A stretch of 64,000 nt of DNA, from NCBI GenBank assembly GCA_017480035.1, contig JAFVBJ010000002.1:248001-312000 (forward strand), written 5' to 3'. Below are positions 7,757-28,593 of this stretch, in pieces. Positions within the stretch are counted from its first letter, which is position 1. Every line of letters starts with the position of its first letter. The DNA is from Candidatus Saccharimonadota bacterium (GTDB lineage: Bacteria > Patescibacteriota > Saccharimonadia > Saccharimonadales > Saccharimonadaceae). Made by a program: the position numbers and the translations under genes. The notes beneath the pieces are model-generated. The model did no database searches, was not told the origin of the DNA, and worked only from the letters and a program-made list of their open reading frames with translations.

Positions 7757-8086
7757 TTAAAACTCCAATCCTTCCTTGCGAGCTGCGTCTGCGAGAGCAG
7801 AGAGGCGGCCTGCATAAGCGTTTGCACCACGATCGAAGACTACTTTCGAGACTTTAGCTTTTTTAGCTTTTGCTGCGATTTCTTTACCGATTTCAGCACA
7901 TTTCTCAGTTTTTGTGCCTTTAAGCTTCGAACCGACAGTAGTTGCGTATGCTAAAGTTTTCTTTGCGTCATCGTCGATGATTTGTGCAGTAATATGTAAG
8001 TTGCTGATTTTCACCGTGAGGCGTGGACGTTCAGCAGTACCATGAATTTTTGCGCGGGTGCGATTTGCACGATATTCAGCTTTCAT
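7757..8086 (-). CDS. rplR: 50S ribosomal protein L18
   Basis: A 109-residue L18, which binds 5S rRNA with L5. It has RPRLTVKISNLHITAQIIDD, the KVVFDRGANAYAGRLSALAD motif and the C-terminal AARKEGLEF. It overlaps rplF by one base. Confidence 0.97.
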   Translation of the reverse strand: MKAEYRANRTRAKIHGTAERPRLTVKISNLHITAQIIDDDAKKTLAYATTVGSKLKGTKTEKCAEIGKEIAAKAKKAKVSKVVFDRGANAYAGRLSALADAARKEGLEF

Positions 8087-8622
8087 TATTTCTTACCTGC
8101 CTTTCCAGCCTTGCGGACGATATATTCGTCAACATATTTAATACCTTTACCCTTGTATGGTTCAGGTTTCTTCAAAGCACGGATCTCTGCTGCGACTTGG
8201 CCGACTTTTTGTTTGTCAATGCCAGAAACAGTGATTTCCATCTTATCAGTTTTAAGTTCGACACCTTCTGGAGCGGTATATTTCACAGGGTGTGAAAAAC
8301 CGAGTGCCATTTCGATTTGTTTGCCACCGCCAGAAAGACGGAAGCCAACACCGTTGATTTCGAGTTTTTTCTCAAAACCTTTAGTGACGCCTTCGACAGC
8401 GTTTTGGAGTAAGGCGCGTTGAAGACCATGCCAAGCTTTCGACTTTGGCTCGTCATCTTTGCGGGTTACTACGATTTTGTTTTCTTCTACCTTTGTGGTA
8501 GTGTTCTGTTGAACAGGGACAGTGAGCGTGCCTTTTGGGCCTGCGACAGTAATATCTTTGTCGCCGACCGTGATTGTCACGCCTGCTGGAATGTCAACAG
8601 GTAGTTTTCCGATACGACTCAT
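8086..8622 (-). CDS. rplF: 50S ribosomal protein L6
   Basis: A 178-residue L6 of normal length. It begins MSRIGKLPVDIPAGVTI, has two repeated L6 folds, and contains the C-terminal PEPYKGKGIKYVDEYIVRK signature. L6 sits near the GTPase centre. In nearly all bacteria it directly follows S8; here S8 is about 20 kb away and rplF has its own promoter and AAGGAAG ribosome-binding site. Confidence 0.98.
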   Translation of the reverse strand: MSRIGKLPVDIPAGVTITVGDKDITVAGPKGTLTVPVQQNTTTKVEENKIVVTRKDDEPKSKAWHGLQRALLQNAVEGVTKGFEKKLEINGVGFRLSGGGKQIEMALGFSHPVKYTAPEGVELKTDKMEITVSGIDKQKVGQVAAEIRALKKPEPYKGKGIKYVDEYIVRKAGKAGKK

Positions 8623-8654
8623 TAAAAAACTTCCTTTTAGTTAATATCCCCGTC

Positions 8655-8683
8655 ATTTTATCATAAAATTCGGATTTTTGCAA
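8655..8683 (-). promoter_or_regulatory. Promoter for the L6-L18-S5-L15 unit
   Basis: TTGCAA and TAAAAT are separated by 17 bp, with an extended -10 TGA. It gives a leader of about 25 nt before rplF. It replaces read-through from S8. Confidence 0.75.
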
Positions 8684-8706
8684 GGATTTCAGGCGGGATT
8701 TTGAGA

Positions 8707-8732
8707 TAAAAAAAGACGCTTTTTCAAGCGGC
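8707..8732 (-). terminator. Terminator after the tRNA-Asp-like gene
   Basis: On the minus strand CGCTT-GAAA-AAGCG is followed by a run of seven T residues, 5 nt after the encoded CCA end. Confidence 0.8.
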
Positions 8733-8736
8733 TTAT

Positions 8737-8814
8737 TGGCGGATCTGACTAGACTCGAACTTGCGACATGTGCCGTGACATGGGCAGTGCTCTAACCTAT
8801 TGAGCTACGAATCC
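8737..8814 (-). tRNA. tRNA-Asp(GTC)-like gene with 8-nt anticodon loop and stem mismatches
   Basis: The cloverleaf is recognisable: D-stem GCTC/GAGC is perfect, the T-loop TTCGAGT is canonical, and a CCA end is encoded. The anticodon arm reads CTGCC-CATGTCAC-GGCAC, so the loop has eight bases with GTC after a T. There are mismatches at 6-67 (C/A), 27-43 (C/C) and 51-63 (A/A). It has a promoter and terminator of its own. Either it is an unusual functional tRNA or a decaying copy. Asp identity is inferred from the GTC triplet only. Confidence 0.65.
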
Positions 8815-8830
8815 ATCGTGGACTTTTTAT

Positions 8831-8858
8831 ACTATAACTTATGTTTTGGATATTTCAA
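8831..8858 (-). promoter_or_regulatory. Promoter for the tRNA-Asp-like gene
   Basis: TTGAAA and TATAGT are separated by 16 bp, ending 17 nt before the first tRNA base. Confidence 0.6.
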
Positions 8859-8866
8859 GAGCAAAC

Positions 8867-8894
8867 TTGAGAAAACGTGGCGGCGGGTTAAAAT
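8867..8894 (+). promoter_or_regulatory. Promoter for the tRNA-Pro gene
   Basis: TTGAGA and TAAAAT are separated by 16 bp. The predicted start is about 5 nt before the tRNA 5' end. Confidence 0.6.
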
Positions 8895-8905
8895 TAGAGT
8901 GGCGT

Positions 8906-8981
8906 CAAAGTATGGCGCAGTTGGTAGCGCGCAGCGTTCGGGACACTGAGGACGTCGGTTCAAGTCCGATTACCCTGACCA
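8906..8981 (+). tRNA. tRNA-Pro(CGG) with three A/C mismatches
   Basis: It is a 76-nt cloverleaf with encoded CCA. The D-stem GCGC/GCGC is perfect, the anticodon loop is TTCGGGA (CGG, Pro), the T-arm is GTCGG-TTCAAGT-CCGAT, and the C1-G72 pair is typical of tRNA-Pro. The acceptor stem CAAAGTA/TACCCTG has A/C mismatches at 3-70 and 4-69, and the anticodon stem has C/A at 30-40. Length, loops and promoter argue for a real gene; three mismatches of the same kind are unusual. Confidence 0.75.
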
Positions 8982-9001
8982 TTTTTGTCAATATCTGTTT
9001 A

Positions 9002-9030
9002 TTGACAAAAAACTGCTACCTTGATATAAT
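9002..9030 (+). promoter_or_regulatory. Consensus promoter of a candidate small RNA
   Basis: A perfect TTGACA and TATAAT are spaced by exactly 17 bp. The next feature is a structured non-coding stretch ending in a terminator. Confidence 0.85.
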
Positions 9031-9035
9031 TAATG

Positions 9036-9126
9036 TGTGCTTGTTTGAGCGCAAGCTCGTGTCTCCGCTATGAATTCTACGCGGGAAATGCAGGCACACT
9101 AAAAGAGACGACCTTGAGTCGCCTTT
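9036..9126 (+). ncRNA. Candidate small structured RNA of unknown family
   Basis: From the predicted start, a terminal stem GTGTGC/GCACAC (9035-9040 with 9094-9099) closes a domain with two hairpins. These are GAGC-GCAA-GCTC and CCGC...GCGG, and GAAA follows the second. A terminator GACGAC-CTTGA-GTCGCC with a T-run ends the unit at about 9126. No open frame of useful length lies inside. I looked for the SRP GGAAGGAAGC-type core and hammerhead or riboswitch cores and did not find them. Confidence 0.65.
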
Positions 9127-9237
9127 TTTAGATTCTATTTTTCTTGTAATATCGAATGCTATAGAAATGGAGATTGCCGCCTTCGCCAATCCTTCTCGCG
9201 ATTACAGATACGGCAGTTTTATCGTTGAGCCGATATG

Positions 9238-9557
9238 TCAGTTCATAATATAGACTGGCTTACGATATTTATTTTCATCTGGGCTCATTATTCTTTCTTC
9301 AGAGCCAAAGTCTTTCGCAAAACGAATCACTCTTCTTGCATAAGACATAAGATTGAGACGCATTCTCTGGTCACTCTCTTTTCTGATCTTGTTTCGCCCG
9401 TTGTGAGTTAAGTGATAAAACCCATTTTGTTAAAATGGACGAGCTCGTCGTTTAGCAAAGGGCATTTTACGGGTTCAAGACGTTTATATTCGAGACGTTT
9501 CAGCTCAATGAGCTCTCTTATACTTAATTTACTTGTATCAACACGAAATTTTTCCAT
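9238..9557 (-). pseudogene. Small gene with a -1 frame change (about 106 aa if joined)
   Basis: An ATG at 9557 with AAGGA 6 nt upstream opens a frame starting MEKFRVDTSKLSIRELIELK. It stops after 49 codons at 9411-9413. Moving to the -1 frame at the GGGTTTT at about 9417-9423 continues without stop for 59 more residues (YHLTHNGRNKIRKESDQRMR onward) to a TGA at 9238. The join falls on G-GGT-TTT in the zero frame, which fits the X-XXY-YYZ pattern of programmed -1 frameshifting. A simple loss of one T is the other explanation. The family is not recognised; the second half is rich in basic helices. Confidence 0.6.
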
Positions 9558-9624
9558 AATTTTCCTTTTTTGTTTAACTTTTACCTCTGTTTTAACGGTT
9601 AAAGAAAATTATATCACACTAAAC

Positions 9625-9652
9625 TTGACATGTAAATAAATTATTTTATAAT
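9625..9652 (+). promoter_or_regulatory. Consensus-like plus-strand promoter
   Basis: TTGACA and TATAAT are separated by 16 bp. It points into 9660-9767, which holds only a 30-codon frame before the convergent end of the defence-like operon. Confidence 0.6.
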
Positions 9653-9670
9653 ACTTATGCTTATCAATTG

Positions 9671-9763
9671 ATGACAAAAGATGACGGGGATTTTCCCGCC
9701 GAACGATGGGACCAAAGACCTTTTAGTCAGACTCTACATTTTTATAACGTACCGTTAACATAA
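9671..9763 (+). CDS. Possible 30-residue peptide or small-RNA region
   Basis: An ATG frame of 30 residues, starting MTKDDGDFPAERWD, lies just downstream of the promoter at 9625. It has no Shine-Dalgarno sequence, and the stop overlaps the tail of the neighbouring convergent operon. It may be a peptide, an untranslated small RNA or nothing. Confidence 0.25.
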   Translation: MTKDDGDFPAERWDQRPFSQTLHFYNVPLT

Positions 9764-9767
9764 AGTG

Positions 9768-10355
9768 TCAAGAGTAAATTATACTATATCGCTGTTCATT
9801 TAATTCTTTAATTGCTTTAATCGCACTCTTTCCTAAACGCTCTATAACCTTTTCATCTAGATTTATTGTAGAATTAATAATCGTATTATCGTATAATTCG
9901 ACTTGATCTATGTCAGCCCATATAGTCGAGCATGTCTTTAACGTCTTTATATACTTAGAATACTTCTCTTTGAGTTCCTTATATGCTCCATTAGCATGTT
10001 TAATTGCATTCGATAGGATTCGGAGTTCCTCATAGTTTACTCTAATATCATATCTTCCGTAAAAAGAGATTACCCTTTTCATGGAGGTATTTTTATTCTT
10101 TTCATTTAAGGCTATAGCATCCATTTTTGCATATTTTATAACCTCTTGCTCGACCATTTCGCGCATTAGAATAATTAGCGCACACTTAAGTTGGTATTCA
10201 AAGTCATCTATATATATTCTTCTAGCTATAGAGTCCTTGTCATCTAGACTATGTTCTTTTTCGGCTCTAAAAAGTACTGCTACCTTATCATTATATGCAT
10301 CCATTATGAATTTTATTTTGTTCGTAAATAATTCAGTTTCTCTGATTTTAGTCAT
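9768..10355 (-). CDS. Third gene of the AAA/subtilase operon: HEPN-like helical protein
   Basis: A 195-residue, highly charged, mostly helical protein with no signal peptide. The segment RVNYEELRILSNAIKHANGA resembles the Rx..N.xKHA signature seen in HEPN-type and related small proteins of defence loci, but I cannot place it firmly in a family. Its start overlaps the end of the subtilase gene by 8 nt, so it is translationally coupled and should act with the ATPase and protease. It could be a toxin, an adaptor or the protease substrate. Confidence 0.7.
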   Translation of the reverse strand: MTKIRETELFTNKIKFIMDAYNDKVAVLFRAEKEHSLDDKDSIARRIYIDDFEYQLKCALIILMREMVEQEVIKYAKMDAIALNEKNKNTSMKRVISFYGRYDIRVNYEELRILSNAIKHANGAYKELKEKYSKYIKTLKTCSTIWADIDQVELYDNTIINSTINLDEKVIERLGKSAIKAIKELNEQRYSIIYS

Positions 10356-12606
10356 CGAATTCTATTTCTTGTTGGAGATGATTATCAAGCTCTATGCGGT
10401 TCTCAATATCAATTTCATTAACGACAAAATGTCTCAATCGGCACAATTGCATAAAAACATCGCTTCTGTTCTGGCCATGTAATTCCTTCAATGTTATAAC
10501 TATTCCTACGTTGATTTTTTTATCTTCAGATTTGCTATTCCTATTAGCAAGTTTAATATCTACGCCCCATGATTGATCGCCAAATCTAGATTTATCCCTG
10601 AGTCTTGGCGAATAGTTTTGGACTATTGTCTTAACATTATCCCATTTTCTGAATAGCTTTCTAGAATCTTCTTCATATGTAAAGTGCCCTAGTTCGTATT
10701 GCTGATCGTCATTTATTGCCTTAATATGTCCAGACATACCGTCTTTCTTTACTCGTCCGAACTTGAAGTCAAGTTCTGTATTCGTGTAATCGACGCCCTG
10801 GTTTCTTGAGCAATCAGTAGCATAGCACATTGTCGCTTTTGCGATAAACGGAAATTTTTCATTAACAGTTGGCATCGGAATGTCATATAGGTAAGTACGA
10901 TACGAGCTAATATTTATATTGAAATAAAATTTTATTTCATCTCTCTTGGAGTTGATTACATCTTCTATTCTGGTTGGTACAATTCCGTATCCATAATAAT
11001 CCGGCTCTTTTTTAGCTACATCAGTAGGATCCCAAGATATGGCTGAATCGATAATCAATGCTTTAGCAACTGGTACCGAGAGATTCATTTTGTCTATAAG
11101 GTATGCCATTTTACGAGATATCCAAGGTGCTGCAAACGACGTTCCGTAGCTTTTTCGCGTTCCGAGAAAGCCATAAACGGTCATTTCATCACCAACATCT
11201 CCACCAAAGACGCATACATCTGGTTTTTGAAAGAATGCCAGCACAGGACCTTTTCTAGCATAACTAACCTTCTTATTCATTGAATTAACAGCATTTACAA
11301 CAAGTGAATTAATTGAATCCGCGGGTGCTCCAATCTTTTTATTATTTTTTCCTTCAATAAAATTAGTACCAGCAATGACAAAAATAATATTTCTATTTTC
11401 CGATTGAATCTCATCTAGTTTTGCAGCCAAAAAAGAGATCGAATTAGGGTCTGCTTCCAAAATTGAGCCCAGACTTATATTCCATACATGGATATCTGGA
11501 TTTTCAGACAACCATTCGTCTATGTGTTTTACAATTGTATGTACACTTACACTGCCATCTGTGGCGACGCCAAAATGTTTGACACGAAAACTCCCGCACC
11601 CGTCGTCAAGACGAGGGTTCAGTCTTGGTCCGTCCACAATTATTGATGTCACAGCGGTGCCATGATAATAGTCCCTTTCTTCTAGCTTTATTCCCTCATG
11701 GTTAAGGACGTTTTCATACTCAACCCAATCCTTAAAATATACCGTATTTTTAAACTGCGTATCAATAACGCCAATTATAGGTTCGTTTTTAGGATCTTTT
11801 ATAAAATATGATTGATCCTCATTACTAGCCATGGACGGTATTTCAGGAATTTCAGAAATGTCTTTTACGTCCATAGACACAAGATATGGGGCGTTCTTCT
11901 CCAGTATCTTCTGCTGCAGTGGGGTTAATAAAACGCTTCCATCTATTATATCATTGCTATTTATTATAGTGCTTAACCCAGCTATTCTTAACAGCTTATC
12001 CATGTCGTCAATATTGTAGAAAGTCACAATTTTACCTTCATTGCTTGATCTAAAACTTTTCGGGATACTAAAGCTCTCAACGTAATTAGCATCCACAATA
12101 ATGCGGATAAATACTGACTTGCTCAATTGGAATTCCGCTAAATCATCACAGTTATCTTTATGTTGCAAATCAAAATCAATAAGACTCTCTCGGTCAAATA
12201 TGTCATACCCACAGTTTTGCATATACTCAATACATTGATTTATCCGCACTATAGTTTTTTCTAAGTACTCCATCGACAATGCATAAGAGATTATATGTTT
12301 ATTTGTTCCTGTTTTAAATTTTGCTCCTACGATATCATTATTTGACGGCATGTTACCCGGAAAGAATAAGAGTTTTTCGATGCGCCTACTTTTTGCTATT
12401 GTTTTATTGTAATGAGCGTCGACTATTATCTTTTCTAAATCTTTCGATTTGTTACTCCAATATTTTTCTACATTAACCAAGTCTTTCTTAAGACCAATCA
12501 GACTTTCAACAGTAACACTACCATCAGCAGGTAGTTCCGGCGTTCCCGGCTTACTATAGTTCTTTGAACTCGAAAAATTTGCCTTTAGCTCAATTAAGTT
12601 TGGCAT
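10348..12606 (-). CDS. Subtilisin-like (S8) protease of an IetAS-like pair
   Basis: A 752-residue cytoplasmic subtilase without signal peptide. About 270 residues of unknown N-terminal domain precede the protease domain. The catalytic triad is intact: Asp282 in GVIDTQ, His315 in YYHGTAV and Ser490 in YGTSFAAP, with an oxyanion Asn near 415 in IAGTNF. A C-terminal domain of about 200 residues follows. The preceding gene is an AAA ATPase and overlaps it by 17 nt. AAA ATPase plus S8 protease is the layout of the IetAS exclusion/anti-phage system. That function is inferred from architecture. Confidence 0.88.
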   Translation of the reverse strand: MPNLIELKANFSSSKNYSKPGTPELPADGSVTVESLIGLKKDLVNVEKYWSNKSKDLEKIIVDAHYNKTIAKSRRIEKLLFFPGNMPSNNDIVGAKFKTGTNKHIISYALSMEYLEKTIVRINQCIEYMQNCGYDIFDRESLIDFDLQHKDNCDDLAEFQLSKSVFIRIIVDANYVESFSIPKSFRSSNEGKIVTFYNIDDMDKLLRIAGLSTIINSNDIIDGSVLLTPLQQKILEKNAPYLVSMDVKDISEIPEIPSMASNEDQSYFIKDPKNEPIIGVIDTQFKNTVYFKDWVEYENVLNHEGIKLEERDYYHGTAVTSIIVDGPRLNPRLDDGCGSFRVKHFGVATDGSVSVHTIVKHIDEWLSENPDIHVWNISLGSILEADPNSISFLAAKLDEIQSENRNIIFVIAGTNFIEGKNNKKIGAPADSINSLVVNAVNSMNKKVSYARKGPVLAFFQKPDVCVFGGDVGDEMTVYGFLGTRKSYGTSFAAPWISRKMAYLIDKMNLSVPVAKALIIDSAISWDPTDVAKKEPDYYGYGIVPTRIEDVINSKRDEIKFYFNINISSYRTYLYDIPMPTVNEKFPFIAKATMCYATDCSRNQGVDYTNTELDFKFGRVKKDGMSGHIKAINDDQQYELGHFTYEEDSRKLFRKWDNVKTIVQNYSPRLRDKSRFGDQSWGVDIKLANRNSKSEDKKINVGIVITLKELHGQNRSDVFMQLCRLRHFVVNEIDIENRIELDNHLQQEIEFDD

Positions 12607-13651
12607 GCTCTTTTATCCTTCTACTAACACTACTCTTGGAAATTCCCGTTATCTGCTCAATCTCCCTTAGCGTAAATCCAACGTCACTTAGCTGTTTTTC
12701 ATCTATAGATATTTTTATCGCCATCCTCTTAATAAGTTCCGACAGCAAGCTAGATGAGTTGTTTTTTTCCGACAATGCAACAGTGACCCTTATTAAATTT
12801 TTAAGTTCACCAGGGCTGGGCATATCGTCTACAAGATTAAAGATTTTTCTTGATACTTTTTCTATGCTATTTATAGATTTATGTTGGTCTTTGATCTCTT
12901 TTAACAACATTTTAATTGCTAAATCAATTAGGTCATTTTTTGTGTAGCGGTCGAAATCAACAACCATATCAAATCTACGCATAAGTGCACGATCCATATG
13001 GTCTTTTAGGTTTGTTGTAGCTATTATAGTAATGTTACTACTTAAGTTATCTAATCCCTGCAATATTTCAGTAGTAGCACGTCCCATTTCTCTATGATCA
13101 CGCTCGTTAACTCTATCCAATGCTATCGCATCGATCTCGTCAAAAACTATGATTATCCTGTTTTGGTTTGATAACGTGTTTATACAATCAAAAAGCCTTA
13201 ATATATTTTTCGCCGTTTGGCCTAGTTTGCTGTCAATAATTGTAGAAAAATCAACTGATAGTATTTCCCTGCCAGTAATTCGCCCGAGCTGTTTGACTGC
13301 CTCTGTCTTTCCTGTGCCCGGCGCACCAACGAACAAAAACTTATTTAGGAATGTTTTTTCATCATTTAGTATTTTACTAATGGCAACGATTTCGTCTGCT
13401 ATTACATCTGGTAAGTATAGAGGATCTGATGACTGAGGTAATATTCTAAAGAAATCCGGTAAAAGATAATTGAACTGGGGAGCTAGTGATACATTATCCG
13501 AAAGCAGAGATATTATATATTCAGATACAATCTCATCTCCTTCATTACTTAAGTCACACGCAATATTGTAGGCTTCATCTCGAAATGCCTTATCATCCCT
13601 TTCGACATGAGCCCTAATCAAGCTTGTTATACTTTGTTTTTTTATACCCAT
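12590..13651 (-). CDS. AAA ATPase with C-terminal HTH, IetA-like
   Basis: A 353-residue ATPase. Walker A is GAPGTGKT (about 109-116), Walker B is IIVFDEID (about 167-174), sensor-1 Asn is in TTNLKDH, and DRALMRRFD supplies the arginine-finger region. After the lid domain the last 30 residues form a helix-turn-helix (LREIEQITGISKSSVSRRIK), suggesting DNA binding or self-regulation. It opens the three-gene operon and overlaps the protease gene. The ATG lies 6 nt after the -10 box, so the mRNA should be leaderless. Confidence 0.9.
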   Translation of the reverse strand: MGIKKQSITSLIRAHVERDDKAFRDEAYNIACDLSNEGDEIVSEYIISLLSDNVSLAPQFNYLLPDFFRILPQSSDPLYLPDVIADEIVAISKILNDEKTFLNKFLFVGAPGTGKTEAVKQLGRITGREILSVDFSTIIDSKLGQTAKNILRLFDCINTLSNQNRIIIVFDEIDAIALDRVNERDHREMGRATTEILQGLDNLSSNITIIATTNLKDHMDRALMRRFDMVVDFDRYTKNDLIDLAIKMLLKEIKDQHKSINSIEKVSRKIFNLVDDMPSPGELKNLIRVTVALSEKNNSSSLLSELIKRMAIKISIDEKQLSDVGFTLREIEQITGISKSSVSRRIKEHAKLN

Positions 13652-13657
13652 GTCTAT

Positions 13658-13686
13658 ATATTAATTCTCAAGGCGAAAAAAGTCAA
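13658..13686 (-). promoter_or_regulatory. Promoter of the AAA/subtilase operon (leaderless)
   Basis: TTGACT and TAATAT are separated by 17 bp. Only ATAGAC separates the -10 from the ATG, so transcription should begin at or next to the start codon. Confidence 0.8.
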
Positions 13687-13745
13687 CATTTTGGGACAGT
13701 TTTCGTTAATGTGGCGACTTTTTTTACTTTTTTTGGAAATAAACC

Positions 13746-13774
13746 TTGTATTTACTTGAACACCATGTTATGAT
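13746..13774 (+). promoter_or_regulatory. Plus-strand promoter upstream of the Cys/His-rich small gene
   Basis: TTGTAT and TATGAT are separated by 17 bp. The transcript would run through a 9-codon frame and a GC-rich hairpin toward the gene at 13965. Confidence 0.55.
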
Positions 13775-13795
13775 GTTCTTAGGTCGAGAGGTAAT

Positions 13796-13825
13796 ATGCC
13801 TTGGAACCGCAAGGTTAACAATTAG
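13796..13825 (+). CDS. Possible 9-residue leader peptide
   Basis: ATG with AGAGGT 5 nt upstream encodes MPWNRKVNN and a stop. A small hairpin CCTTG-GAAC-CGCAAGG overlaps it, and a strong hairpin at 13836-13867 follows. The arrangement is like an attenuation leader for the gene at 13965. No more than suggestive. Confidence 0.35.
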   Translation: MPWNRKVNN

Positions 13826-13830
13826 GTATA

Positions 13831-13900
13831 GAAAAACGCCGTCTCATGAATTGGTCGATGGCGGCGTCTTCCAGATAAGAAACGTTGTAGTGCTTCTTAA
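13831..13900 (-). ncRNA. Candidate small RNA, antisense to the 13796-13860 leader
   Basis: A minus-strand promoter at 13906-13934 directs a roughly 70-nt transcript. It contains a TTCCA...TGGAA hairpin and ends in a terminator, stem ACGCCG/CGGCGT followed by TTTTTC (13832-13867). No open frame is present. It is convergent with and antisense to the plus-strand leader transcript. Confidence 0.6.
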
Positions 13901-13905
13901 TTGGA

Positions 13906-13934
13906 ATTATATACTTTTATTGTTGCTTTGTCAA
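13906..13934 (-). promoter_or_regulatory. Perfect consensus promoter of the antisense small RNA
   Basis: TTGACA and TATAAT are spaced by 17 bp, both hexamers perfect. Confidence 0.85.
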
Positions 13935-13964
13935 TATTAACTAACAAAAGAAAAAGCCTCAATT

Positions 13965-14207
13965 ATGGAGTTCTATTTTCTTAATTCGAACGAACAACCA
14001 CCAGAGAGTTCTACCCACAAGCATGAACATGAATTGCATCGAGTAGACTGTCCGTTCTTTCCAGACGAAAGTGAAAAATTTGGTCCATACAAGACGTCAC
14101 AAGAAGCACTCTTAGCAGCAAGGATCTGGACGTCGATGAAAGGATATGACTGGTTTGTCGACGGTTGTGCGGAATGCTGCCCTGAAATTGACAGCGATAA
14201 GCAATAA
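13965..14207 (+). CDS. Small Cys/His-rich protein of unknown function
   Basis: An 80-residue protein. The N-terminal part has HKHEHELHRVDCPFFPDE and the C-terminal part has FVDGCAECCPEID. The pattern of a His-x-x-x-Cys start, a central alanine-rich helix (SQEALLAARIW) and a closing DGC..CC occurs in small bacterial proteins of unknown role that probably bind a metal or hold a disulfide. It is one of few plus-strand genes in the block and ends at a strong symmetric terminator. The Shine-Dalgarno sequence is weak. Confidence 0.65.
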   Translation: MEFYFLNSNEQPPESSTHKHEHELHRVDCPFFPDESEKFGPYKTSQEALLAARIWTSMKGYDWFVDGCAECCPEIDSDKQ

Positions 14208-14210
14208 CAA

Positions 14211-14244
14211 AAAATATGCGCGAGATGCCTCGCGCATATTTTTT
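14211..14244. terminator. Symmetric terminator between convergent units
   Basis: A 14-bp perfect stem AAAATATGCGCGAG/CTCGCGCATATTTT has a 4-nt loop. It follows the plus-strand small gene and sits at the end of the minus-strand remnant, so it can serve both. Confidence 0.9.
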
Positions 14245-14419
14245 AATCTCTCGCGAACAAATCGCGCGTATAAACCTTGTTGTGTACATCGAGCAAGTCA
14301 TCGCTCAAACGGTTCGCCAGAATGACAGACGACATGCCCTTAAACTTGTCGATATTGTTTATGACGGGACGGCCATTGAATTCTGGCTCGTTAAGGCTAG
14401 CTCGTAGATCACAAATCAA
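14243..14419 (-). pseudogene. 3' remnant of a UDP-glucose/GDP-mannose dehydrogenase gene
   Basis: The minus strand reads EPEFNGRPVINNIDKFKG, then SSVILANRLSDDLLDV and KVYTRDLFARD before a TAA. This is the C-terminal end of the nucleotide-sugar 6-dehydrogenase family (Ugd-like), whose members typically end NRxxxxLxDVxxKVYTRDLFxxD. About 55 residues remain. An in-frame stop lies at 14420-14422 and no start codon is present, so the rest of the gene is missing. It marks the left edge of the polysaccharide locus and suggests deletion of a sugar-precursor gene. Confidence 0.8.
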
Positions 14420-14426
14420 TTACAAT

Positions 14427-14837
14427 TCAAGCTCTGATACCACGTGGGATTATTGCGTACCTTAACTCAGCCTGTTTTTTACCGTCATTATATCTGCAGT
14501 CAATGAGAATACCATTATCGTCGTCATTCATGCTTTGGATTACAGATTTAATTTCGCGGTCAAGACCATAGTAGATTTTTCTGTTCATTCTATCAATAAA
14601 TGGGCTAACAAGCATGTACAGCTCATGACTATCGATTTTCTTCCAAAACTCCTTTTCCGAGTCGGATGGATTTATATCTTTAATTATGAGAATTAGGCAT
14701 GAATCCGACAACAACTCGTCGTCTACGAGGCACCTAACGACATACCTCACTTCGTCCTCGAACTCTATTTTTCTATGGCACAAGTCTGGTTCTCCGACAG
14801 GCAACTTGATTTCTCGAAAATACTTTGTTCCTTTCAT
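14427..14837 (-). CDS. Hypothetical protein
   Basis: A 136-residue acidic soluble protein from the ATG at 14837, which has AAAGG upstream. A longer frame begins at 14879, but that codon lies inside a CATAAT -10-like box. Notable segments are DEVRYVVRCLVDDELLSD and a C-terminal KKQAELRYAIIPRGIRA. No signal peptide or membrane segment is present, and I do not recognise the family. It lies between the dehydrogenase remnant and the first glycosyltransferase. Confidence 0.6.
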   Translation of the reverse strand: MKGTKYFREIKLPVGEPDLCHRKIEFEDEVRYVVRCLVDDELLSDSCLILIIKDINPSDSEKEFWKKIDSHELYMLVSPFIDRMNRKIYYGLDREIKSVIQSMNDDDNGILIDCRYNDGKKQAELRYAIIPRGIRA

Positions 14838-14969
14838 ATTTTTTAGCCTTTCTTTATTAGTTAGCCTACTTACCCTCATTATGACATAAAAAATACGTTT
14901 TCAAAACTCCTAAACACTTTAATGCAAAAATATCTGCACGATAATAGTTTTGATACCACAATCAATGTT

Positions 14970-15908
14970 CTAAGCAGTTATTATTTTCTTACCTGCATAG
15001 CGAGCCATATAGTACAGTTTTAACGCCATTATATTTTTGCTTCTATAAAATCTAGAAAACACCTTTAAATATTTTCTTTTGCCTGTATATTTTTTTAAAT
15101 GGAATCTATCTATTATACCCATAAACTCCCGTCTGTCAACTTTTGCTATTTCGGCTTCAAAAATACGAATCTTCATGTTTTCAATTTCTTCGTCATATTT
15201 ATGTTCCGCTGTTTCTTTTAATATATTAGTTGCGTTCACAATACTCTCTAATTTATTATTAATATTCTTATTGCTTTTTGTGACGCTATTATCGTTCTCA
15301 TAATAATAATAAATACCTGAACTCTTTGGAATAAATTTAATGCTTTTTATCTTATTCCTTCTTATATATTCAACAAGAAATATCACATCCTCAAGATAAT
15401 TGATATTTTCATTATACATAGCACATTTATCTCGCTCAAACAGATATCCCCACGAGAATCCTTGCAGTTCGTCGCAAGCAATCTTTTTTATGATATCCTC
15501 ACTACGGTATGAAGACTCGCGGTGTATTTCCGTTTCTCTTTTTTTATCCTTAAAAAATATTCTACTACTATTTAGCGTTCCTTCTTCTCGCGAATTAATC
15601 AATGCCATGATAACACCGACATCGATTGTGTCGTCAGAGTCAAGAAAAAAAATATATTCTCCTGATGCCTTTTTAATGCCATTATTTCGCGCCGAAGAAA
15701 CGCCGCGATTCTCCTGAAAGATATATTTTATCTGTGTATTCTTTTTTGCAAGTTTTTTACCTATTTCGGCAGTTTTATCTGTAGAACCGTCGTTAATAAT
15801 AATGATTTCGAGATTGTTATAAGTCTGCTCTAATACGCTATTTATGCAACGTTCAAGAGTATCCTCGGCATTAAAGGTTGGGATAATTATTGATACTTTA
15901 GGATTCAT
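14970..15908 (-). CDS. Glycosyltransferase family 2
   Basis: A 312-residue GT2 (GT-A fold, inverting). It has VSIIIPTFNAEDTLERCINS, IIINDGSTDKT and FLDSDDT for sugar-nucleotide and metal binding. The start at 15908 has AAGGAG 5 nt upstream and overlaps the preceding gene by 11 nt; a longer frame at 15929 is less likely. It is the last gene of the polysaccharide operon. Donor and acceptor cannot be told from sequence. Confidence 0.9.
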   Translation of the reverse strand: MNPKVSIIIPTFNAEDTLERCINSVLEQTYNNLEIIIINDGSTDKTAEIGKKLAKKNTQIKYIFQENRGVSSARNNGIKKASGEYIFFLDSDDTIDVGVIMALINSREEGTLNSSRIFFKDKKRETEIHRESSYRSEDIIKKIACDELQGFSWGYLFERDKCAMYNENINYLEDVIFLVEYIRRNKIKSIKFIPKSSGIYYYYENDNSVTKSNKNINNKLESIVNATNILKETAEHKYDEEIENMKIRIFEAEIAKVDRREFMGIIDRFHLKKYTGKRKYLKVFSRFYRSKNIMALKLYYMARYAGKKIITA

Positions 15909-16878
15909 AGAGCTCCTTAATTTTTCCATAATATGCTTTTTTATCAGTAAATCTGTCGATATTTACTTTCGGCTTTTCTGGATTTTCGAGATAATTTAAG
16001 ATTTTCTCGATATATTCTTCGTCGGTTTTGCAGATATATTCTTCATTTTCTGCGAAAATTTCAGAAAGTCCACCAACGCCAGAGTTAAAAACTGGAACAT
16101 TTAGACTAAGACATTCAATGGCGGTGAGACCAAAGCCTTCCCATCTTGACGGCATAACGACACATTTGCAGTCTTTAAGAACTCTATATGGGTTTTCGAG
16201 ATAGCCAGTTTTTTTGATGTCGAGTTTTTTCGTATCGATTTCGCCAGCACCAATCATTACGGCTTTAACATTTTTCTTTTCAGAGATTTTTTCGACGATT
16301 CTAACGAATTGTTCTGGATTTTTTTGTTCTGTGATACGGCCGATAAATCCAACGTCGAATTTTCCGTATTCATTTGTTTCTTGTGATAATTTTTTAATCT
16401 TTTCTTTATCAATGATATTCGGAAGGACGAGTGATTTTTCCTCTACGGATTTCTTATAAACCGCTTCGTCAAAAGTCGCGGTCGAAACAAAAACTATATT
16501 ATCGAATTTTCTGCTGACGGTTTTAAAAATAATAGTGTATTTGTTCCATTTTTTTGCGAATGGCCAATTGTTATGTATATGAGAGATGATTTTTCCTTTA
16601 AAGCCGGTGAGTGCAGTAAATGTACTAGCACGATAGTCATGTGCATGAATAATATCTGGTTTTTCTTCTTCGATAATTTTTTTGACGGATTTCAGATTTA
16701 TTTCGGAGACAAGATGATGATTGATTCCCTTTTCGTCGAGAACTTTGCGGATTTCTCCATCTTTGCTAACATAGACAAATTCGTAGTTGTCGTTGTCGCG
16801 GAGATTTTCGATTATTGAAATTGCGACGTTTTCCGCGCCAGAGAAGCTATCAGAAGAGAGTAGATGAAGAACTTTCAT
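15898..16878 (-). CDS. Glycosyltransferase family 4
   Basis: A 326-residue GT-B retaining enzyme. The N-terminal domain begins MKVLHLLSSDSFSGAENVAI and contains PDIIHAHDYRAS. The C-terminal domain has VGFIGRITEQKNPE and the EX7E motif in PSRWEGFGLTAIECL. It overlaps its upstream neighbour by ATGA. It likely adds one sugar to the lipid-linked repeat unit on the cytoplasmic face. Confidence 0.92.
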   Translation of the reverse strand: MKVLHLLSSDSFSGAENVAISIIENLRDNDNYEFVYVSKDGEIRKVLDEKGINHHLVSEINLKSVKKIIEEEKPDIIHAHDYRASTFTALTGFKGKIISHIHNNWPFAKKWNKYTIIFKTVSRKFDNIVFVSTATFDEAVYKKSVEEKSLVLPNIIDKEKIKKLSQETNEYGKFDVGFIGRITEQKNPEQFVRIVEKISEKKNVKAVMIGAGEIDTKKLDIKKTGYLENPYRVLKDCKCVVMPSRWEGFGLTAIECLSLNVPVFNSGVGGLSEIFAENEEYICKTDEEYIEKILNYLENPEKPKVNIDRFTDKKAYYGKIKELYES

Positions 16879-17738
16879 TTTTCAAATGCCTTCTTTTTCA
16901 TATTGGAAGTTCTAAGCCCTAGGCGCTCCTTTATGTAGTGTATTTTTACATACATATAGCACTGCATTTTTTTAAAGAAATTCATTCTCATGGAACCTAA
17001 AACGTGCATTAAAATGTCTTCATGTGCTTTCGATTTTTCTATTTTTTCGTCAATTTTCTTTGCAGAGCGGGACATACTATTTGGGGTTACCCTGTAATTT
17101 AATACTATTTTATCAAGATAACCATACTTTCCAGTTTTGTCATAAAAAATAGGTAATAGCAACTGCCAATTTTGACCAGCTTTAGATTCGTATATATTGC
17201 GGTTTAAAATAACCTTGTCAAAGAAATTGGTTTTTACCATGTATACTCCGCTATACTGATAATCGTCTTTATGAAAAAAGAATATGTCAAAAATGTTTTT
17301 TGCATTTGGGTATTTACTTTTCATTATTCCAATTTCTTTTAGGTTTTTTTCATCAATGTGTCTTGAGCAGCCACGGATATAGTCATATCCTCCATCAACC
17401 ATAAACTTAAGCATCTGTTCGATAGCATCTAGCTCATAAAAATCATCACTGTCAATCCATGCAAAATACTCTCCCTGGATTTCTTTTAAGCCACGATTCA
17501 TAGCGCTACCAACGCCATTATTTTTTTGGTAAACGTATTTTAGTGTTTCCCCTTTTTTCTTAAAAATATTTTCATATGATTTTATTATTTTCGCACTATT
17601 ATCAGTTGAACCGTCATCGACAATAATAACCTCAATGTTTTTATACGTTTGATTTGCTAGATTATCGAGATTTTTACCAATATATTCGTCACTGTTATAA
17701 CAAGTAATAACTACACTTACTAGCGGATTATTTTTCAT
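16875..17738 (-). CDS. Glycosyltransferase family 2
   Basis: A 287-residue GT2 with LVSVVITCYNSDEYI, VIIVDDGSTDNS and WIDSDDF. The C-terminal quarter is basic and may associate with the membrane. Overlaps of 4 nt with the GT4 gene and 11 nt with the flippase gene show a tight operon. It is a probable repeat-unit assembly enzyme; the sugar is unknown. Confidence 0.9.
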   Translation of the reverse strand: MKNNPLVSVVITCYNSDEYIGKNLDNLANQTYKNIEVIIVDDGSTDNSAKIIKSYENIFKKKGETLKYVYQKNNGVGSAMNRGLKEIQGEYFAWIDSDDFYELDAIEQMLKFMVDGGYDYIRGCSRHIDEKNLKEIGIMKSKYPNAKNIFDIFFFHKDDYQYSGVYMVKTNFFDKVILNRNIYESKAGQNWQLLLPIFYDKTGKYGYLDKIVLNYRVTPNSMSRSAKKIDEKIEKSKAHEDILMHVLGSMRMNFFKKMQCYMYVKIHYIKERLGLRTSNMKKKAFEK

Positions 17739-19257
17739 TTTTTCGCCTCAACATCTTAACCATATTTTTATAATCATCACTGTTGTGATATACAGCAATA
17801 ATAGCAATTGCAAATAAGACAACCGTAAATATACCATAAATAATCAACTTAGCTACAAGCGAATTAATCGTAATTGCGCCAAGCGCAAAGTAGCTAATCA
17901 CTGCAAGAATAACAACAATAAAGATGTATAATAAGTGTCTTTTTATATATTCTGACATTGATTTATTAAAAACATTTTTATAAATTAGATATGGCCTTTG
18001 CCATGATGGTAATACAATACTACTGACGACTGTACCGATGACTACGCCTAAAACTCCAATCTGCTGAACTAATATAATCGACACAGTAAGATTCACTAGC
18101 GCCTGGATAAGCGGAGTATATCTATCTTCTTTATATATACCAGCAGATTGTTTAATTGTATTCGCAATAACGCGCATACCGACTAGATAGAAGTTAAAGA
18201 TCATCAAAATCACAACCCAAAAATTCATAACATAGGATTCGCCAGCCCAAAGCTCTATAAATGGAGTTATCAAATTAAATAGTGCGATAGCGCAGAAGGC
18301 ATAAATAATAAAACCAACAAAGTCGAGTTTTTTATATGCCGCATATTGATAGTCCTTATTTTCAGTCACAATAATATTACCAAAAGATGAAACTAGAGAA
18401 TTAAATATTAATGTTGTGACGGAAATCAGCATTGTAATAATTGTCAAATAGTTCGTATAGACCGCAACTGCACTAATCGAAATAAATGCAGAAATTATAA
18501 TATTATCTGTACTGTTCACACAGTAATCTCCAATTTTGTGAAGAAACAATGCTTTAATATTTGTTTTCAATGTCGATAGTTCTTTTTTCTCAATTTTTTC
18601 ATCCGTATAAAAATCAATATCATTGTATTTTTTTGTTATATATCGATTCACAACTCCTCGATAAATTATCTGCATCACAATTTGTGCCATTAAGTACAAA
18701 ATATAATTTTGAGATATTAATAACACAAGAAGAAGAACTACATTAGCGATCACATCAGAAATGATTTGGATTTTTAAAATCTCACTGGCACGTTGGTCTG
18801 CGGTAATGAGAACTTCTTTATACGAGATTAAATAAGTAATAACGACATTAACTAAGAATAAGAGATATATTAATAATGCATTATCGATAGTTTGATATTC
18901 TTTAATTATAACTGGCAAAAATGGGATAAGAAATAATCCCAAAACTAACACTATTATCGCAATTAAGCCGTAGGCTTTTCGGAAAAAGCTCATAATAGCA
19001 CTAATTGTTTTTTTATCGTTCTTCGAAAGCGGAGAGTAGAGACTGTAGCCAACTGCTGAACTGATACCTAACTCCGCGAGAGACAGCATTGAAATAATAT
19101 TAGTAAATAGACTATTTACACCTAAGATTTTTTGACCAAGAACATGGATAAAGAACGTCCGCGTAACAAAAGTGATGGCAATTTTAATAAATTGACTAAT
19201 CATGCCATACTTGACATTTTTAAGAGCTTTTCCTGTTCTTCTCGTCTTAACTTCCAT
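17728..19257 (-). CDS. Wzx-type oligosaccharide flippase (MATE/PST family)
   Basis: A 509-residue polytopic protein with about 12-14 hydrophobic segments. It starts GKALKNVKYGMISQFIKIAI and has an early SLAELGISSAVGYSLY region typical of polysaccharide transporters. Such proteins flip undecaprenyl-linked repeat units across the membrane for a Wzy-type polymerase; the EpsG-like gene four genes upstream would be the partner. The ATG overlaps the nitroreductase-like stop. Confidence 0.92.
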   Translation of the reverse strand: MEVKTRRTGKALKNVKYGMISQFIKIAITFVTRTFFIHVLGQKILGVNSLFTNIISMLSLAELGISSAVGYSLYSPLSKNDKKTISAIMSFFRKAYGLIAIIVLVLGLFLIPFLPVIIKEYQTIDNALLIYLLFLVNVVITYLISYKEVLITADQRASEILKIQIISDVIANVVLLLVLLISQNYILYLMAQIVMQIIYRGVVNRYITKKYNDIDFYTDEKIEKKELSTLKTNIKALFLHKIGDYCVNSTDNIIISAFISISAVAVYTNYLTIITMLISVTTLIFNSLVSSFGNIIVTENKDYQYAAYKKLDFVGFIIYAFCAIALFNLITPFIELWAGESYVMNFWVVILMIFNFYLVGMRVIANTIKQSAGIYKEDRYTPLIQALVNLTVSIILVQQIGVLGVVIGTVVSSIVLPSWQRPYLIYKNVFNKSMSEYIKRHLLYIFIVVILAVISYFALGAITINSLVAKLIIYGIFTVVLFAIAIIAVYHNSDDYKNMVKMLRRKNEK

Positions 19258-20243
19258 TAGACAACCTTATATACGTCCTTTAAAGATTTTCTCGGACTCT
19301 TTGTGATTGCTACATTATCTGGATAATATCCTGCTGCAATTAGGACGCCAACTCTCTCGCTTTTTTTTGCACCAATTATCCGCTTAACTGTTTCTTCATC
19401 TTCTGAGCTATTGCCAAACTGACAAAAACACGATCCGATACCAAGAGAATGAAGCGCATTAACAAAATTCATTGAGACTAAGCCAGTATTTAACCATCCT
19501 TGATTTCTTTCACCAATAAAATAATTTGCACTAACATCAAAAGTTACAACGAAAAGGTTAATAGTTTCTTTTTCAAAACCGCCAAAACCTTGAGCAAGAG
19601 CTATAATTTTCTTAGCTTTTTGGTCATCCTTTACGTAATACACTTTACACATTTGACGATTACAAGCAGTAGGTGAAAATAATACTGCTTCCATAGCTTT
19701 TTCGACATCCTTTTCATGCAATTTCTTAGATTGAAATTCACGAATTGAGTGACGGCTTTTTACAAACTCAAAGTAATCTATTTTTTTCTCGTTGGAATAT
19801 CTAAAATATTCCGTAGCGAGGTTAACTTTTTCTATTTTTTCTTTCGTTTTCAAAAAATTGAAAACTTTAATATACTCATCAGTATCTTGCCATCCTCGTT
19901 TTTTATAGAACTCAGTATATTCTCGGAGAATATTAATTCCTACGATATAAGCAAAATCGTCGGTATCAAAATTATTCGATTCATATCTTTCGATAAGCTC
20001 TATCAGATTATTTACTTTTTCAATACCAAATCTTCTAGGGTTTTTATTTATCATAGCTTTTTCTAAAGAATGTGCTATTAATAAAATGTTATATCCATTT
20101 TTTTCTTTAGTGTCTCCTTCTGAGTGAAAATAATTAGAAAGGAAGAATTTTTTATCATACAAAAATTCCTTTCTGTTCTGATTCCAGAAGTATATCTTTT
20201 TTATTAATGGATTCTTTCCCAAGGTTTTTTTAATCGAGTCCAT
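19257..20243 (-). CDS. Nitroreductase-family flavoprotein in the polysaccharide locus
   Basis: A 328-residue protein. About 140 residues of unknown N-terminal sequence precede a nitroreductase fold: SRHSIREFQSK (FMN phosphate contact), SPTACNRQMCKVY, QGWLNTGLVSMNFVNALHSLG and VGVLIAAGYYP. Such proteins recur in capsule loci, often beside pyruvyl transferases as here, with uncertain roles. I choose the ATG at 20243, 7 nt after TATAAT (leaderless), rather than the longer frame at 20348 that would run into the upstream gene. Confidence 0.87.
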   Translation of the reverse strand: MDSIKKTLGKNPLIKKIYFWNQNRKEFLYDKKFFLSNYFHSEGDTKEKNGYNILLIAHSLEKAMINKNPRRFGIEKVNNLIELIERYESNNFDTDDFAYIVGINILREYTEFYKKRGWQDTDEYIKVFNFLKTKEKIEKVNLATEYFRYSNEKKIDYFEFVKSRHSIREFQSKKLHEKDVEKAMEAVLFSPTACNRQMCKVYYVKDDQKAKKIIALAQGFGGFEKETINLFVVTFDVSANYFIGERNQGWLNTGLVSMNFVNALHSLGIGSCFCQFGNSSEDEETVKRIIGAKKSERVGVLIAAGYYPDNVAITKSPRKSLKDVYKVV

Positions 20244-20251
20244 GTCTATTA

Positions 20252-21235
20252 TTATACCATAATTACAAACAATCTCGCCTTTGCGTCGCTCACAACTTTG
20301 TAGGCAAAATATCTCATTTTCACAAATAGATATCCAGGGAAATTCCATGTTTTTCTAAACATTGCGATATTAGTTCCAATTTTATTATTCTTCATTTTTT
20401 CAACAAAGTTCTTGTAATCCTTATATGACTTATTTTGTAACGCTAGGTACACTACGTTCATTATTGCGTCATCGTATTTTCTCTTGATATATTTCGCCTT
20501 AATAAATTTTGATAAGTTAGTTTCCATTTCATTTCGCAAATAAATAAGGTTCTGGATATTTTTTTCATCAGAAAAACTTTCAGTAGCTTCATTCTCACTA
20601 TAGATGTAATAATATAACGGTTTAGAGACATACATAATACGCTTTGACTGATTTACTGCTTTTGCCATAAAAACAGTGTCTTCGCCATAAACTAGTTTTT
20701 CATCGAATTTTACACTTCTTGCAATTGTAGTTTTTATTAGCGCAAAACATGACGAATCAACAGTTACGCCTTTGCCAAAGTATGAAAAGATTTTCTTATC
20801 ATATTCATTTTTTTCTATGACAGTATCTTCTTCTATTAAAGTTTCAGCGATTAGTGAGTGTTTTTTACCTTTTCTCATCATTCGGCATTTTACAATGTCT
20901 AGATTGTTCTTTTTTGCTTCTTGCGTCAATTCTTTTAAAAAGTCTTCATGTAGTACGTCGTCAGCATCCAAGAAAGACACAAATTCGCCCATTGCCACAT
21001 TTAAAGCACTATTTCTAGCCGACGATACGCCTCCGTTTTGTTTACGTATAACAACTATGTTGCCATTTTCTTGAGCAAATTTTTCAGCAATTTTGCCAGT
21101 TTTATCTTCTGAACCATCATCAACAATAATAATCTCATAGCTATCAAAAGTTTGGTTTAGAACCGATTCTACAGCTCTTTTGAGATATTTTTCCGAATTA
21201 TAGGCGGGAATTATCACACTAACAAATGGTTTCAT
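20252..21235 (-). CDS. Glycosyltransferase family 2
   Basis: A 327-residue GT2 with VSVIIPAYNSEKYLKRAVES, IIVDDGSEDKTG and FLDADDV. A basic C-terminal third includes WNFPGYLFVKMRYF. The ATG is 7 nt after a TGATATAAT box, so it has its own predicted leaderless start inside the locus. Confidence 0.9.
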   Translation of the reverse strand: MKPFVSVIIPAYNSEKYLKRAVESVLNQTFDSYEIIIVDDGSEDKTGKIAEKFAQENGNIVVIRKQNGGVSSARNSALNVAMGEFVSFLDADDVLHEDFLKELTQEAKKNNLDIVKCRMMRKGKKHSLIAETLIEEDTVIEKNEYDKKIFSYFGKGVTVDSSCFALIKTTIARSVKFDEKLVYGEDTVFMAKAVNQSKRIMYVSKPLYYYIYSENEATESFSDEKNIQNLIYLRNEMETNLSKFIKAKYIKRKYDDAIMNVVYLALQNKSYKDYKNFVEKMKNNKIGTNIAMFRKTWNFPGYLFVKMRYFAYKVVSDAKARLFVIMV

Positions 21236-21248
21236 AAGCTTTATTATA

Positions 21249-22301
21249 TCACTTTAAATTATCACGAAGGAATGCTACGCTTTTCTTCTTTTCTGCTTCT
21301 AAGATTTTATATGCCTCCGTGTAGTTGTGTTTAAAGCACTTATCAGTTATTTCATTATTATATGCATGTTCTTTAAGATTGAATTTTCTCAATAGCGTTT
21401 CAATACGGCTATTCATTTTTTCTACGCCAGGTTCAATACGATCAAATACAACAAATGGTCTGTTGAAAATAATTGCAAATACGCAGGAGTGGAACGAATC
21501 AGTACAAACCAATTCAGCATGTTTTTCCAGATATAAAAATTCGCTCGGACCGGTATTATAAAATAGGCCATTTTTATCAAGGATATTAATTATCTCACAG
21601 TTTCGTTCTTTTGCGAGCTTTTCAATCGCTTCTTTTCTATTATCAGTTAAATTACCGAGAAAATAATTTAAAATATATTTTTTTGGTACTTGCTCTGGTT
21701 TTTTAGCAATTTTGTCCCATTCTTCTGCTGCGAGCAACATGGTCGGGTCAATAAGAACTTCCGCATCTTTTCTTCCGGACAATTCCTTAACTAACTCTTT
21801 CCCTCTTTCTTCACGAACTGAAATCGCATTTAACTCAAGTAGGCCTTTTTTATAATCATTCTTCTTATTTTCTGGTATATTATTAACGCCAAAGCTAGCA
21901 CTGAAAGAAATTTTTTTCTTTTTAACACCCGTAAGTAGATACACTGAATTATTTGTGAAGTAATCTGGATTCCAAACTTGGTCAGAACCCACGAGTAAAG
22001 CGTCATATTTTTTCGCAACCTTACACATATCTTTTTTGAAGAGAACGTGATTTTTAATATTTAAATATTTATTAAATGATTTAAATATTCTACTTCTTTT
22101 TGGGTTAACTATAATGTCTTGTTTCTTTCGCCAATAAAAATCACCGAGATTTGATTTTATTCCATTTTTAGCACTATAAATCCAAATGGTCTCAGGATCA
22201 TAGCCATTCTGTTCTAGCGTTTTGATAATTGCATAATTCTGTAGCTTATTACCGTAATTATTATTACCGCAAAGAGTAATTATCCCGATCTTTTTTTTCA
22301 T
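21249..22301 (-). CDS. Polysaccharide pyruvyl transferase family protein
   Basis: A 350-residue protein starting KKKIGIITLCGNNNYGNKLQ. It has the family motifs LLVGSDQVWNPDYF, FSASFG, VREERG, DPTMLL and the C-terminal CTDSFHSCVFAIIFNRPFVV. Members transfer pyruvate from phosphoenolpyruvate to a sugar, giving an acidic ketal; some act as related transferases. It overlaps the EpsG-like gene by 4 nt. A negatively charged surface polymer is the likely outcome. Confidence 0.9.
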   Translation of the reverse strand: MKKKIGIITLCGNNNYGNKLQNYAIIKTLEQNGYDPETIWIYSAKNGIKSNLGDFYWRKKQDIIVNPKRSRIFKSFNKYLNIKNHVLFKKDMCKVAKKYDALLVGSDQVWNPDYFTNNSVYLLTGVKKKKISFSASFGVNNIPENKKNDYKKGLLELNAISVREERGKELVKELSGRKDAEVLIDPTMLLAAEEWDKIAKKPEQVPKKYILNYFLGNLTDNRKEAIEKLAKERNCEIINILDKNGLFYNTGPSEFLYLEKHAELVCTDSFHSCVFAIIFNRPFVVFDRIEPGVEKMNSRIETLLRKFNLKEHAYNNEITDKCFKHNYTEAYKILEAEKKKSVAFLRDNLK

Positions 22302-24495: not shown

Positions 24496-24519
24496 CTCTG
24501 TTATAATTAGCTTGCTATA

Positions 24520-24555
24520 TACTTATATTATAGCACATAACAGATAAAAAGTCAA
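24520..24555 (-). promoter_or_regulatory. Recurrent 36-bp promoter (copy 1) for the glycosyltransferase operon
   Basis: TTGACT and TATAAT are spaced by 17 bp, with an extended -10 TGC and a constant downstream ATAAGTA. The spacer resembles that of the other copies at 27352, 35341 and 45704. Confidence 0.85.
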
Positions 24556-24598
24556 TAAAAGCTAGCGCTTATCAAACATAGAAAGGGGTAACAAAAAG

Positions 24599-24682
24599 CT
24601 ATTTAGTTTCTGCTTTGGCTTTTTTCTTTTTCTCGCGCTCAAAAGCGTCAGATAAGATTTTTTTCATTTCTTTTACGTTCAT
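24599..24682 (-). CDS. Possible 27-residue basic peptide
   Basis: A short frame reading MNVKEMKKILSDAF followed by a Lys/Glu/Ala-rich tail lies 16 nt after the alarmone-synthetase gene on the same strand. There is AAAGG about 12 nt upstream. It is too short for a family call; it may be a real microprotein or chance. Confidence 0.35.
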   Translation of the reverse strand: MNVKEMKKILSDAFEREKKKKAKAETK

Positions 24683-24698
24683 TATTTATATTATACCT

Positions 24699-25688: not shown

Positions 25689-25730
25689 GCATTTATTCTA
25701 GCATTCGAAAAGTATGCAGGCAAGATTATA

Positions 25731-26612: not shown

Positions 26613-26632
26613 TAGGGATATTATAGCACACC

Positions 26633-27349: not shown

Positions 27350-27351
27350 AT

Positions 27352-27387: not shown

Positions 27388-27416
27388 TAACATAAGCATA
27401 ATCGCGCCGAGAATGC

Positions 27417-28576: not shown

Positions 28577-28593
28577 GCGAAAAGCTTATAAAA

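What the first reader, a model, noticed from the sequence alone, without database searches (positions are those of the whole stretch)
8737..8981. Two divergent tRNA genes with matching A/C mismatches, one with an 8-nt anticodon loop
tRNA-Pro(CGG) has A/C mismatches at 3-70, 4-69 and C/A at 30-40. The tRNA-Asp-like gene has C/A at 6-67, further mismatches and an extra base in the anticodon loop. Both have CCA ends and promoters, and one has a terminator. Four of the mismatches are A opposite C, which would be repaired by C-to-U or A-to-I conversion; alternatively these are decaying duplicates. An eight-base anticodon loop is typical of +1 frameshift-suppressor tRNAs.
Basis: partly seen in the sequence, partly recalled or inferred. 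Interest (0 to 1): 0.65.

Follow-up and report, generated by a model that had tools for sequence, protein, structure and literature searches.

The report
Decaying spare copy of two tRNAs
Two tRNA genes beside a ribosomal-protein gene in a rumen Saccharibacterium are a spare copy that is rotting away, because the same genome keeps a perfect pair elsewhere while its closest relative kept this copy and lost the other; this is ordinary gene turnover, not RNA editing or frameshift suppression.

Summary
A tRNA-Asp-like gene (8814-8737, minus strand) and a tRNA-Pro(CGG) gene (8906-8981, plus strand) stand back to back upstream of rplF, with the mismatches and the 8-base anticodon loop that were described. 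They are the two lowest-scoring of 46 tRNAs in the genome (40.6 and 47.5 bits; next lowest 49.6). The genome also has a normal divergent Asp/Pro(CGG) pair at C3:94427-94665 (69.7 and 65.2 bits), so neither window gene is needed. The normal pair sits at the home site shared with relatives (LytR - tRNAs - glycosyltransferase - pyk). The sister genome G161 has the mirror image: no tRNAs at the home site and an intact pair upstream of rplF. The pair was therefore copied to rplF in the common ancestor, and the two lineages lost opposite copies. In the window lineage the rplF copy is decaying: 12 private substitutions, 10 of them GC-to-AT and none AT-to-GC, plus one insertion. A.C mismatches are what single transitions in a helix produce. 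Editing fails because C.C, A.A and the insertion would remain, and no TadA or Thg1 was found. Ordinary tRNA pseudogenes; transcription is untested.

The parts
8737..8814 (-). Decayed tRNA-Asp(GUC) copy (psi-tRNA-Asp): mismatches C6.A67, C27.C43, A51.A63; G15A, T17A, G26A, G45T; extra A between positions 32 and 33; CCA at 8739-8737
   Evidence: Rfam RF00005 40.6 bits, lowest of 46 in the genome; not called by ARAGORN; 8 substitutions + 1 insertion against the genus Asp sequence, which is identical in 21 fetched loci, its own intact copy included
8906..8981 (+). Decayed tRNA-Pro(CGG) copy: private changes G3A, G4A, G40A, C47A giving A3.C70, A4.C69, C30.A40; CCA at 8979-8981; shares A7-T66 with the G161 ortholog
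   Evidence: Rfam 47.5 bits, second lowest of 46; ARAGORN Pro(cgg); comparison with the other Pro(CGG) sequences of the genus
8815..8905 (.). 91-bp spacer of the divergent pair; promoter-like boxes for both genes (Asp: TTGAAA 8858-8853, TATAGT to 8831; Pro: TTGAGA 8867, TAAAAT to 8894)
   Evidence: alignable with the spacers of the intact pairs (alignment score 57.5 against 25 for shuffles with G161)
8717..8730 (-). Terminator-like hairpin with T run after the tRNA-Asp copy
8086..8622 (-). rplF (ribosomal protein L6), the gene that anchors the insertion site
   Evidence: Pfam PF00347; the intact pair lies upstream of rplF in G161 too

Best explanation
The two genes are pseudogenes, or genes far along the way, left from a segmental duplication of a divergent tRNA-Asp/tRNA-Pro(CGG) pair. 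Shown by comparison: the home site of these tRNAs in the genus is LytR - tRNAs - glycosyltransferase - pyk - pgk; G161 has an intact pair upstream of rplF and an empty home site; this genome has an intact pair at the home site and a degraded pair upstream of rplF. Inferred: the pair was copied to rplF in the common ancestor of the two, by an unknown mechanism; G161 kept the rplF copy and lost the home copy; this genome kept the home copy, and its rplF copy lost selection and gathers AT-biased mutations. Also inferred: the decayed copies make no usable tRNA and any transcript is degraded. The A.C mismatches are the footprint of transitions (mostly G-to-A) in G-C pairs, and the 8-base loop is an indel in an unselected gene.
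For: (1) Intact divergent Asp/Pro(CGG) pair in the same genome at C3:94427-94665 (69.7 and 65.2 bits). (2) G161 has an intact divergent pair at the orthologous place upstream of rplF. Its Pro gene shares the A7-T66 pair with the window copy; no other fetched intact Pro(CGG) has it. (3) At the home site of G161, LytR and the glycosyltransferase abut with no tRNA and no remnant, while G039, G055, G028, G157 and others keep Asp and/or Pro(CGG) there. (4) G161 is the sister genome: rpsH 98% identical (next best 83%), bootstrap 99 / SH-aLRT 92. (5) The window copies are the two worst-scoring of 46 tRNAs, and their counterparts in relatives score 61.9-69.9 (Asp) and 60-67 (Pro CGG). (6) Private substitutions: 10 GC-to-AT, 0 AT-to-GC (sign test p = 0.002), and 6 mismatches, where the ancestors have none. 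(7) The neighbouring protein gene in 9130-9570 is broken too.
Against: The copies are still recognisable (90-92% identical to G161) while the spacer between them has drifted much more, so decay is recent or constraint ended late. Promoter-like boxes survive. Anticodons, D-arms and CCA ends are intact. The Pro copy has only four private changes. No expression data exist. G161 is 81% complete, so a further copy in its missing part cannot be excluded, although both relevant sites were read.
Confidence: 0.93

Rival explanations
1. Functional tRNAs whose A.C mismatches are repaired after transcription by A-to-I or C-to-U editing, or by 5'-end repair.
For: Four of six mismatches are A.C; seven of twelve private substitutions are G-to-A in the tRNA sense, all formally reversible by A-to-I; promoters and CCA ends persist.
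Against: C27.C43, A51.A63, G45T and the extra loop base cannot be repaired this way. A transition in a Watson-Crick pair can only give G.U or A.C, so A.C is the expected mismatch: simulated decay gives an A.C share of 0.30-0.64 and at least 4 A.C in 4-21% of runs when transitions are favoured two- to six-fold. The only PF00383/PF14437 protein found is dCMP-deaminase-like; no tRNA-Arg(ACG), the usual TadA substrate, is present; no Thg1. Intact Asp and Pro(CGG) genes make editing unnecessary.
Confidence: 0.02
2. The Asp copy with its 8-base anticodon loop is a +1 frameshift-suppressor or four-base decoder.
For: The loop is 8 bases with GUC retained.
Against: Classical suppressors are otherwise sound tRNAs; this one also has C.C and A.A mismatches, a broken 15-48 pairing (A15, C48) and C6.A67. 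No relative shows it: all other fetched Asp genes have the 7-base loop, and rplF and the ribosomal genes nearby are intact. No gene needing such a suppressor was looked for.
Confidence: 0.015
3. The copies no longer serve translation but are kept as tRNA-like regulatory RNAs or as an attachment or insertion landmark for the island between rpsH and rplF.
For: Promoter-like boxes remain; the rpsH-rplF gap is an insertion hotspot; G161 has extra tRNA-Pro 3' ends right after its Pro gene.
Against: No second copy of the window Pro 3' end exists in the window and no integrase gene was recognised among the island ORFs read; the changes are strictly AT-drifting; none of the 85 other rplF loci fetched (most with 1.5-4 kb of flank) has an Asp or Pro tRNA there.
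Confidence: 0.03
4. Sequencing or assembly error.
For: The source is an assembled genome of 3 contigs, not confirmed by reads here.
Against: 12 scattered private substitutions plus a non-homopolymer insertion in about 150 nt, beside an intact rplF reading frame; shared derived A7-T66 with G161.
Confidence: 0.005

Closest known systems
Bacterial tRNA pseudogenes (tRNAscan-SE class 'possible pseudogene'; discussed in PMC8450103 and PMC9858662)
   Same: Low covariance score, mismatched stems, insertion, functional isoacceptor elsewhere in the genome.
   Different: Here the intact ortholog and the mirror-image loss in a sister genome are both visible, so the history can be read.
Gene movement by duplication and reciprocal loss
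   Same: Two sites, opposite copies kept in sister lineages, one copy still decaying.
   Different: Concerns a divergent pair of tRNA genes in a reduced Saccharibacteria genome, not protein genes after genome doubling.
+1 frameshift-suppressor tRNAs (from general knowledge)
   Same: 8-base anticodon loop.
   Different: Those are otherwise intact and charged; this copy has several other lesions.
Edited tRNAs (TadA I34; archaeal C-to-U at position 8; mitochondrial 5' editing; from general knowledge)
   Same: A.C mismatches in genomic stems occur in some edited tRNAs.
   Different: Not all lesions are repairable, and the known enzymes TadA and Thg1 were not found in this genome.

Membership tests
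tRNA pseudogene by duplication | Derived from a tRNA gene | tested here: met
   RF00005 above gathering score for both genes
tRNA pseudogene by duplication | Intact functional-looking copy elsewhere in the same genome | tested here: met
   C3:94427-94665 pair
tRNA pseudogene by duplication | Lesions absent from orthologs and paralogs | tested here: met
tRNA pseudogene by duplication | Not charged or used in translation | not testable with these tools
   needs tRNA sequencing or charging assays
Edited tRNA | All mismatches repairable by one known conversion | tested here: not met
   C27.C43, A51.A63 and the loop insertion remain
Edited tRNA | Known editing or repair enzyme encoded in the genome | tested here: not met
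   no TadA-type or Thg1 hit; an unknown enzyme cannot be excluded
Edited tRNA | Edited reads | not testable with these tools
   no reads available
+1 frameshift suppressor tRNA | 8-base anticodon loop | tested here: met
+1 frameshift suppressor tRNA | Otherwise sound tRNA body | tested here: not met

The most novel reading that the evidence does not exclude
The decayed pair is still transcribed and has been kept for a role outside translation, for example as tRNA-like regulatory RNAs or as an insertion landmark at the rpsH-rplF hotspot.
Probability: 0.03. Interest if true: 0.45.

Novelty: new member of a known kind. Interest (0 to 1): 0.13.

Why it matters
It is a clear snapshot of how tRNA genes change place in a reduced genome: one sister species kept the new site, the other the old site, and the discarded copy is still readable. 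It also shows why A.C mismatches in a lone tRNA gene should not be taken as a sign of RNA editing before the genome has been searched for an intact copy.

Tried and rejected
Attachment-site idea: no second copy of the Pro 3' end in the window and no useful flanking repeats. Compensatory change at Pro 2-71 (A-T against T-A in G161): rejected as evidence of selection, since both states are common in the genus. Editing enzymes: only a dCMP-deaminase-like protein and no Thg1. A first mismatch simulation had wrong D-stem indices and was replaced; the substitution lists and sign tests are unaffected. The small RNA and broken ORF next door were searched in viral contigs without result. Paper searches found no report of this locus.

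Full report
What is there. The window is G000:C2:248001-312000 of a rumen-type Saccharibacteria genome of 772,806 bases in 3 contigs. Upstream of rplF lie two divergent tRNA-like genes: tRNA-Asp-like 8814-8737 (minus) and tRNA-Pro(CGG) 8906-8981 (plus). Two further mismatches of the Asp copy are C27.C43 and A51.A63.

Are they needed? No. The genome holds 46 Rfam tRNA hits. Reading them with ARAGORN shows one intact tRNA-Asp(GUC) and one intact tRNA-Pro(CGG), standing as a divergent pair at C3:94427-94665. They score 69.7 and 65.2 bits. The window copies score 40.6 and 47.5, the lowest two of the genome. In relatives, Asp genes score 61.9-69.9 and Pro(CGG) genes 60-67.1. The Asp sequence is identical in 21 fetched loci (the own intact copy and several overlapping loci are counted among them) and differs in the window at 8 positions plus an insertion.

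Where they came from. The two pairs of this genome are homologous over their whole length, spacer included. Among the 174 genomes of the genus searched, joint divergent pairs were seen in G000 (twice), G161, G135 and G173; the Pro gene of G173 has anticodon GGG. In G161 the pair sits upstream of rplF, as in the window, and is intact. Its Pro gene carries the A7-T66 pair otherwise seen only in the window copy, which marks these two as orthologs. G161 is the nearest relative by rpsH: 98% identity against 83% for the next, and a two-member clade with support 99/92.

The home site. The C3 pair lies beside LytR, a membrane glycosyltransferase, pyk and pgk. The same neighbourhood carries tRNA-Asp and tRNA-Pro(CGG) in G039, G055 and G028, tRNA-Asp in G157, and tRNA-Pro(CGG) in about ten more genomes. 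This is taken as the ancestral place. In G161 the two flanking genes abut there, with no tRNA and no remnant. None of the 85 other rplF loci fetched has an Asp or Pro tRNA near rplF. The simplest history is one copying of the pair to rplF in the common ancestor of G000 and G161, then loss of opposite copies. The copying and its mechanism are inferred; the four site states are observed.

Decay signature. With the inserted base set aside, the window copies carry 12 private substitutions: Asp G15A, T17A, G26A, G43C, G45T, G51A, C63A, G67A; Pro G3A, G4A, G40A, C47A. Ten are GC-to-AT and none AT-to-GC (sign test p = 0.002). A transition in a Watson-Crick pair can only give G.U, which is tolerated, or A.C. 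So A.C is the mismatch that ordinary decay shows first. In simulated decay with transitions favoured two- to six-fold, A.C makes up 30-64% of mismatches; four of six is unremarkable. A mild excess of G-to-A over C-to-T in the tRNA sense (7 to 0, p = 0.02) is unexplained.

Editing and suppression. Undoing all A.C pairs would leave C.C, A.A and the inserted base. The only deaminase found resembles a dCMP deaminase; TadA and Thg1 were not found, and there is no tRNA-Arg(ACG). The 8-base loop is one lesion among several.

Limits. Promoter-like boxes remain, so transcripts may still be made; no expression data are available. G161 is 81% complete. The decay was not dated: the tRNA copies are 90-92% identical to G161, while the spacer has 73% identity with many gaps against 61% for shuffled sequence, which suggests that selection was lost late.

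Noticed in passing
window 9002-9133, plus strand; G064 C2:3161-3224 (L221): A perfect promoter (TTGACA-17-TATAAT) precedes a stably folded RNA-like stretch of about 98 nt (z = -3.3) ending in a hairpin with a T run; its 64-nt core is 91% conserved in one relative, and no Rfam family matches.
   Followed up: partly
window about 9130-9570, minus strand; L221 1023-1490: A broken reading frame homologous to an intact 155-aa protein of unknown family that lies beside the same RNA-like stretch in G064; the two may form one module.
   Followed up: partly
window 8623-28593: The spc ribosomal operon is split between rpsH and rplF by about 20 kb of glycosyltransferase, flippase and other surface-polysaccharide genes; the gap ranges from 13 bp to several kb in relatives, an insertion hotspot inside a ribosomal operon.
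   Followed up: partly
window 10348-13651, minus strand: Subtilase plus AAA ATPase matching the IetS and IetA models of the IetAS anti-phage system.
   Followed up: partly
window 24699-25688, minus strand: RelA/SpoT-domain protein matching the PADLOC candidate defence model PDC-S33.
   Followed up: no
L048 857-905 (G161): Two partial tandem copies of the tRNA-Pro 3' end with CCATTTTT directly after the intact tRNA-Pro, like remnants of integration or slippage.
   Followed up: no
window 8737-8981: Seven G-to-A and no C-to-T changes in the tRNA sense of two genes on opposite strands (p = 0.02), an unexplained strand bias.
   Followed up: partly
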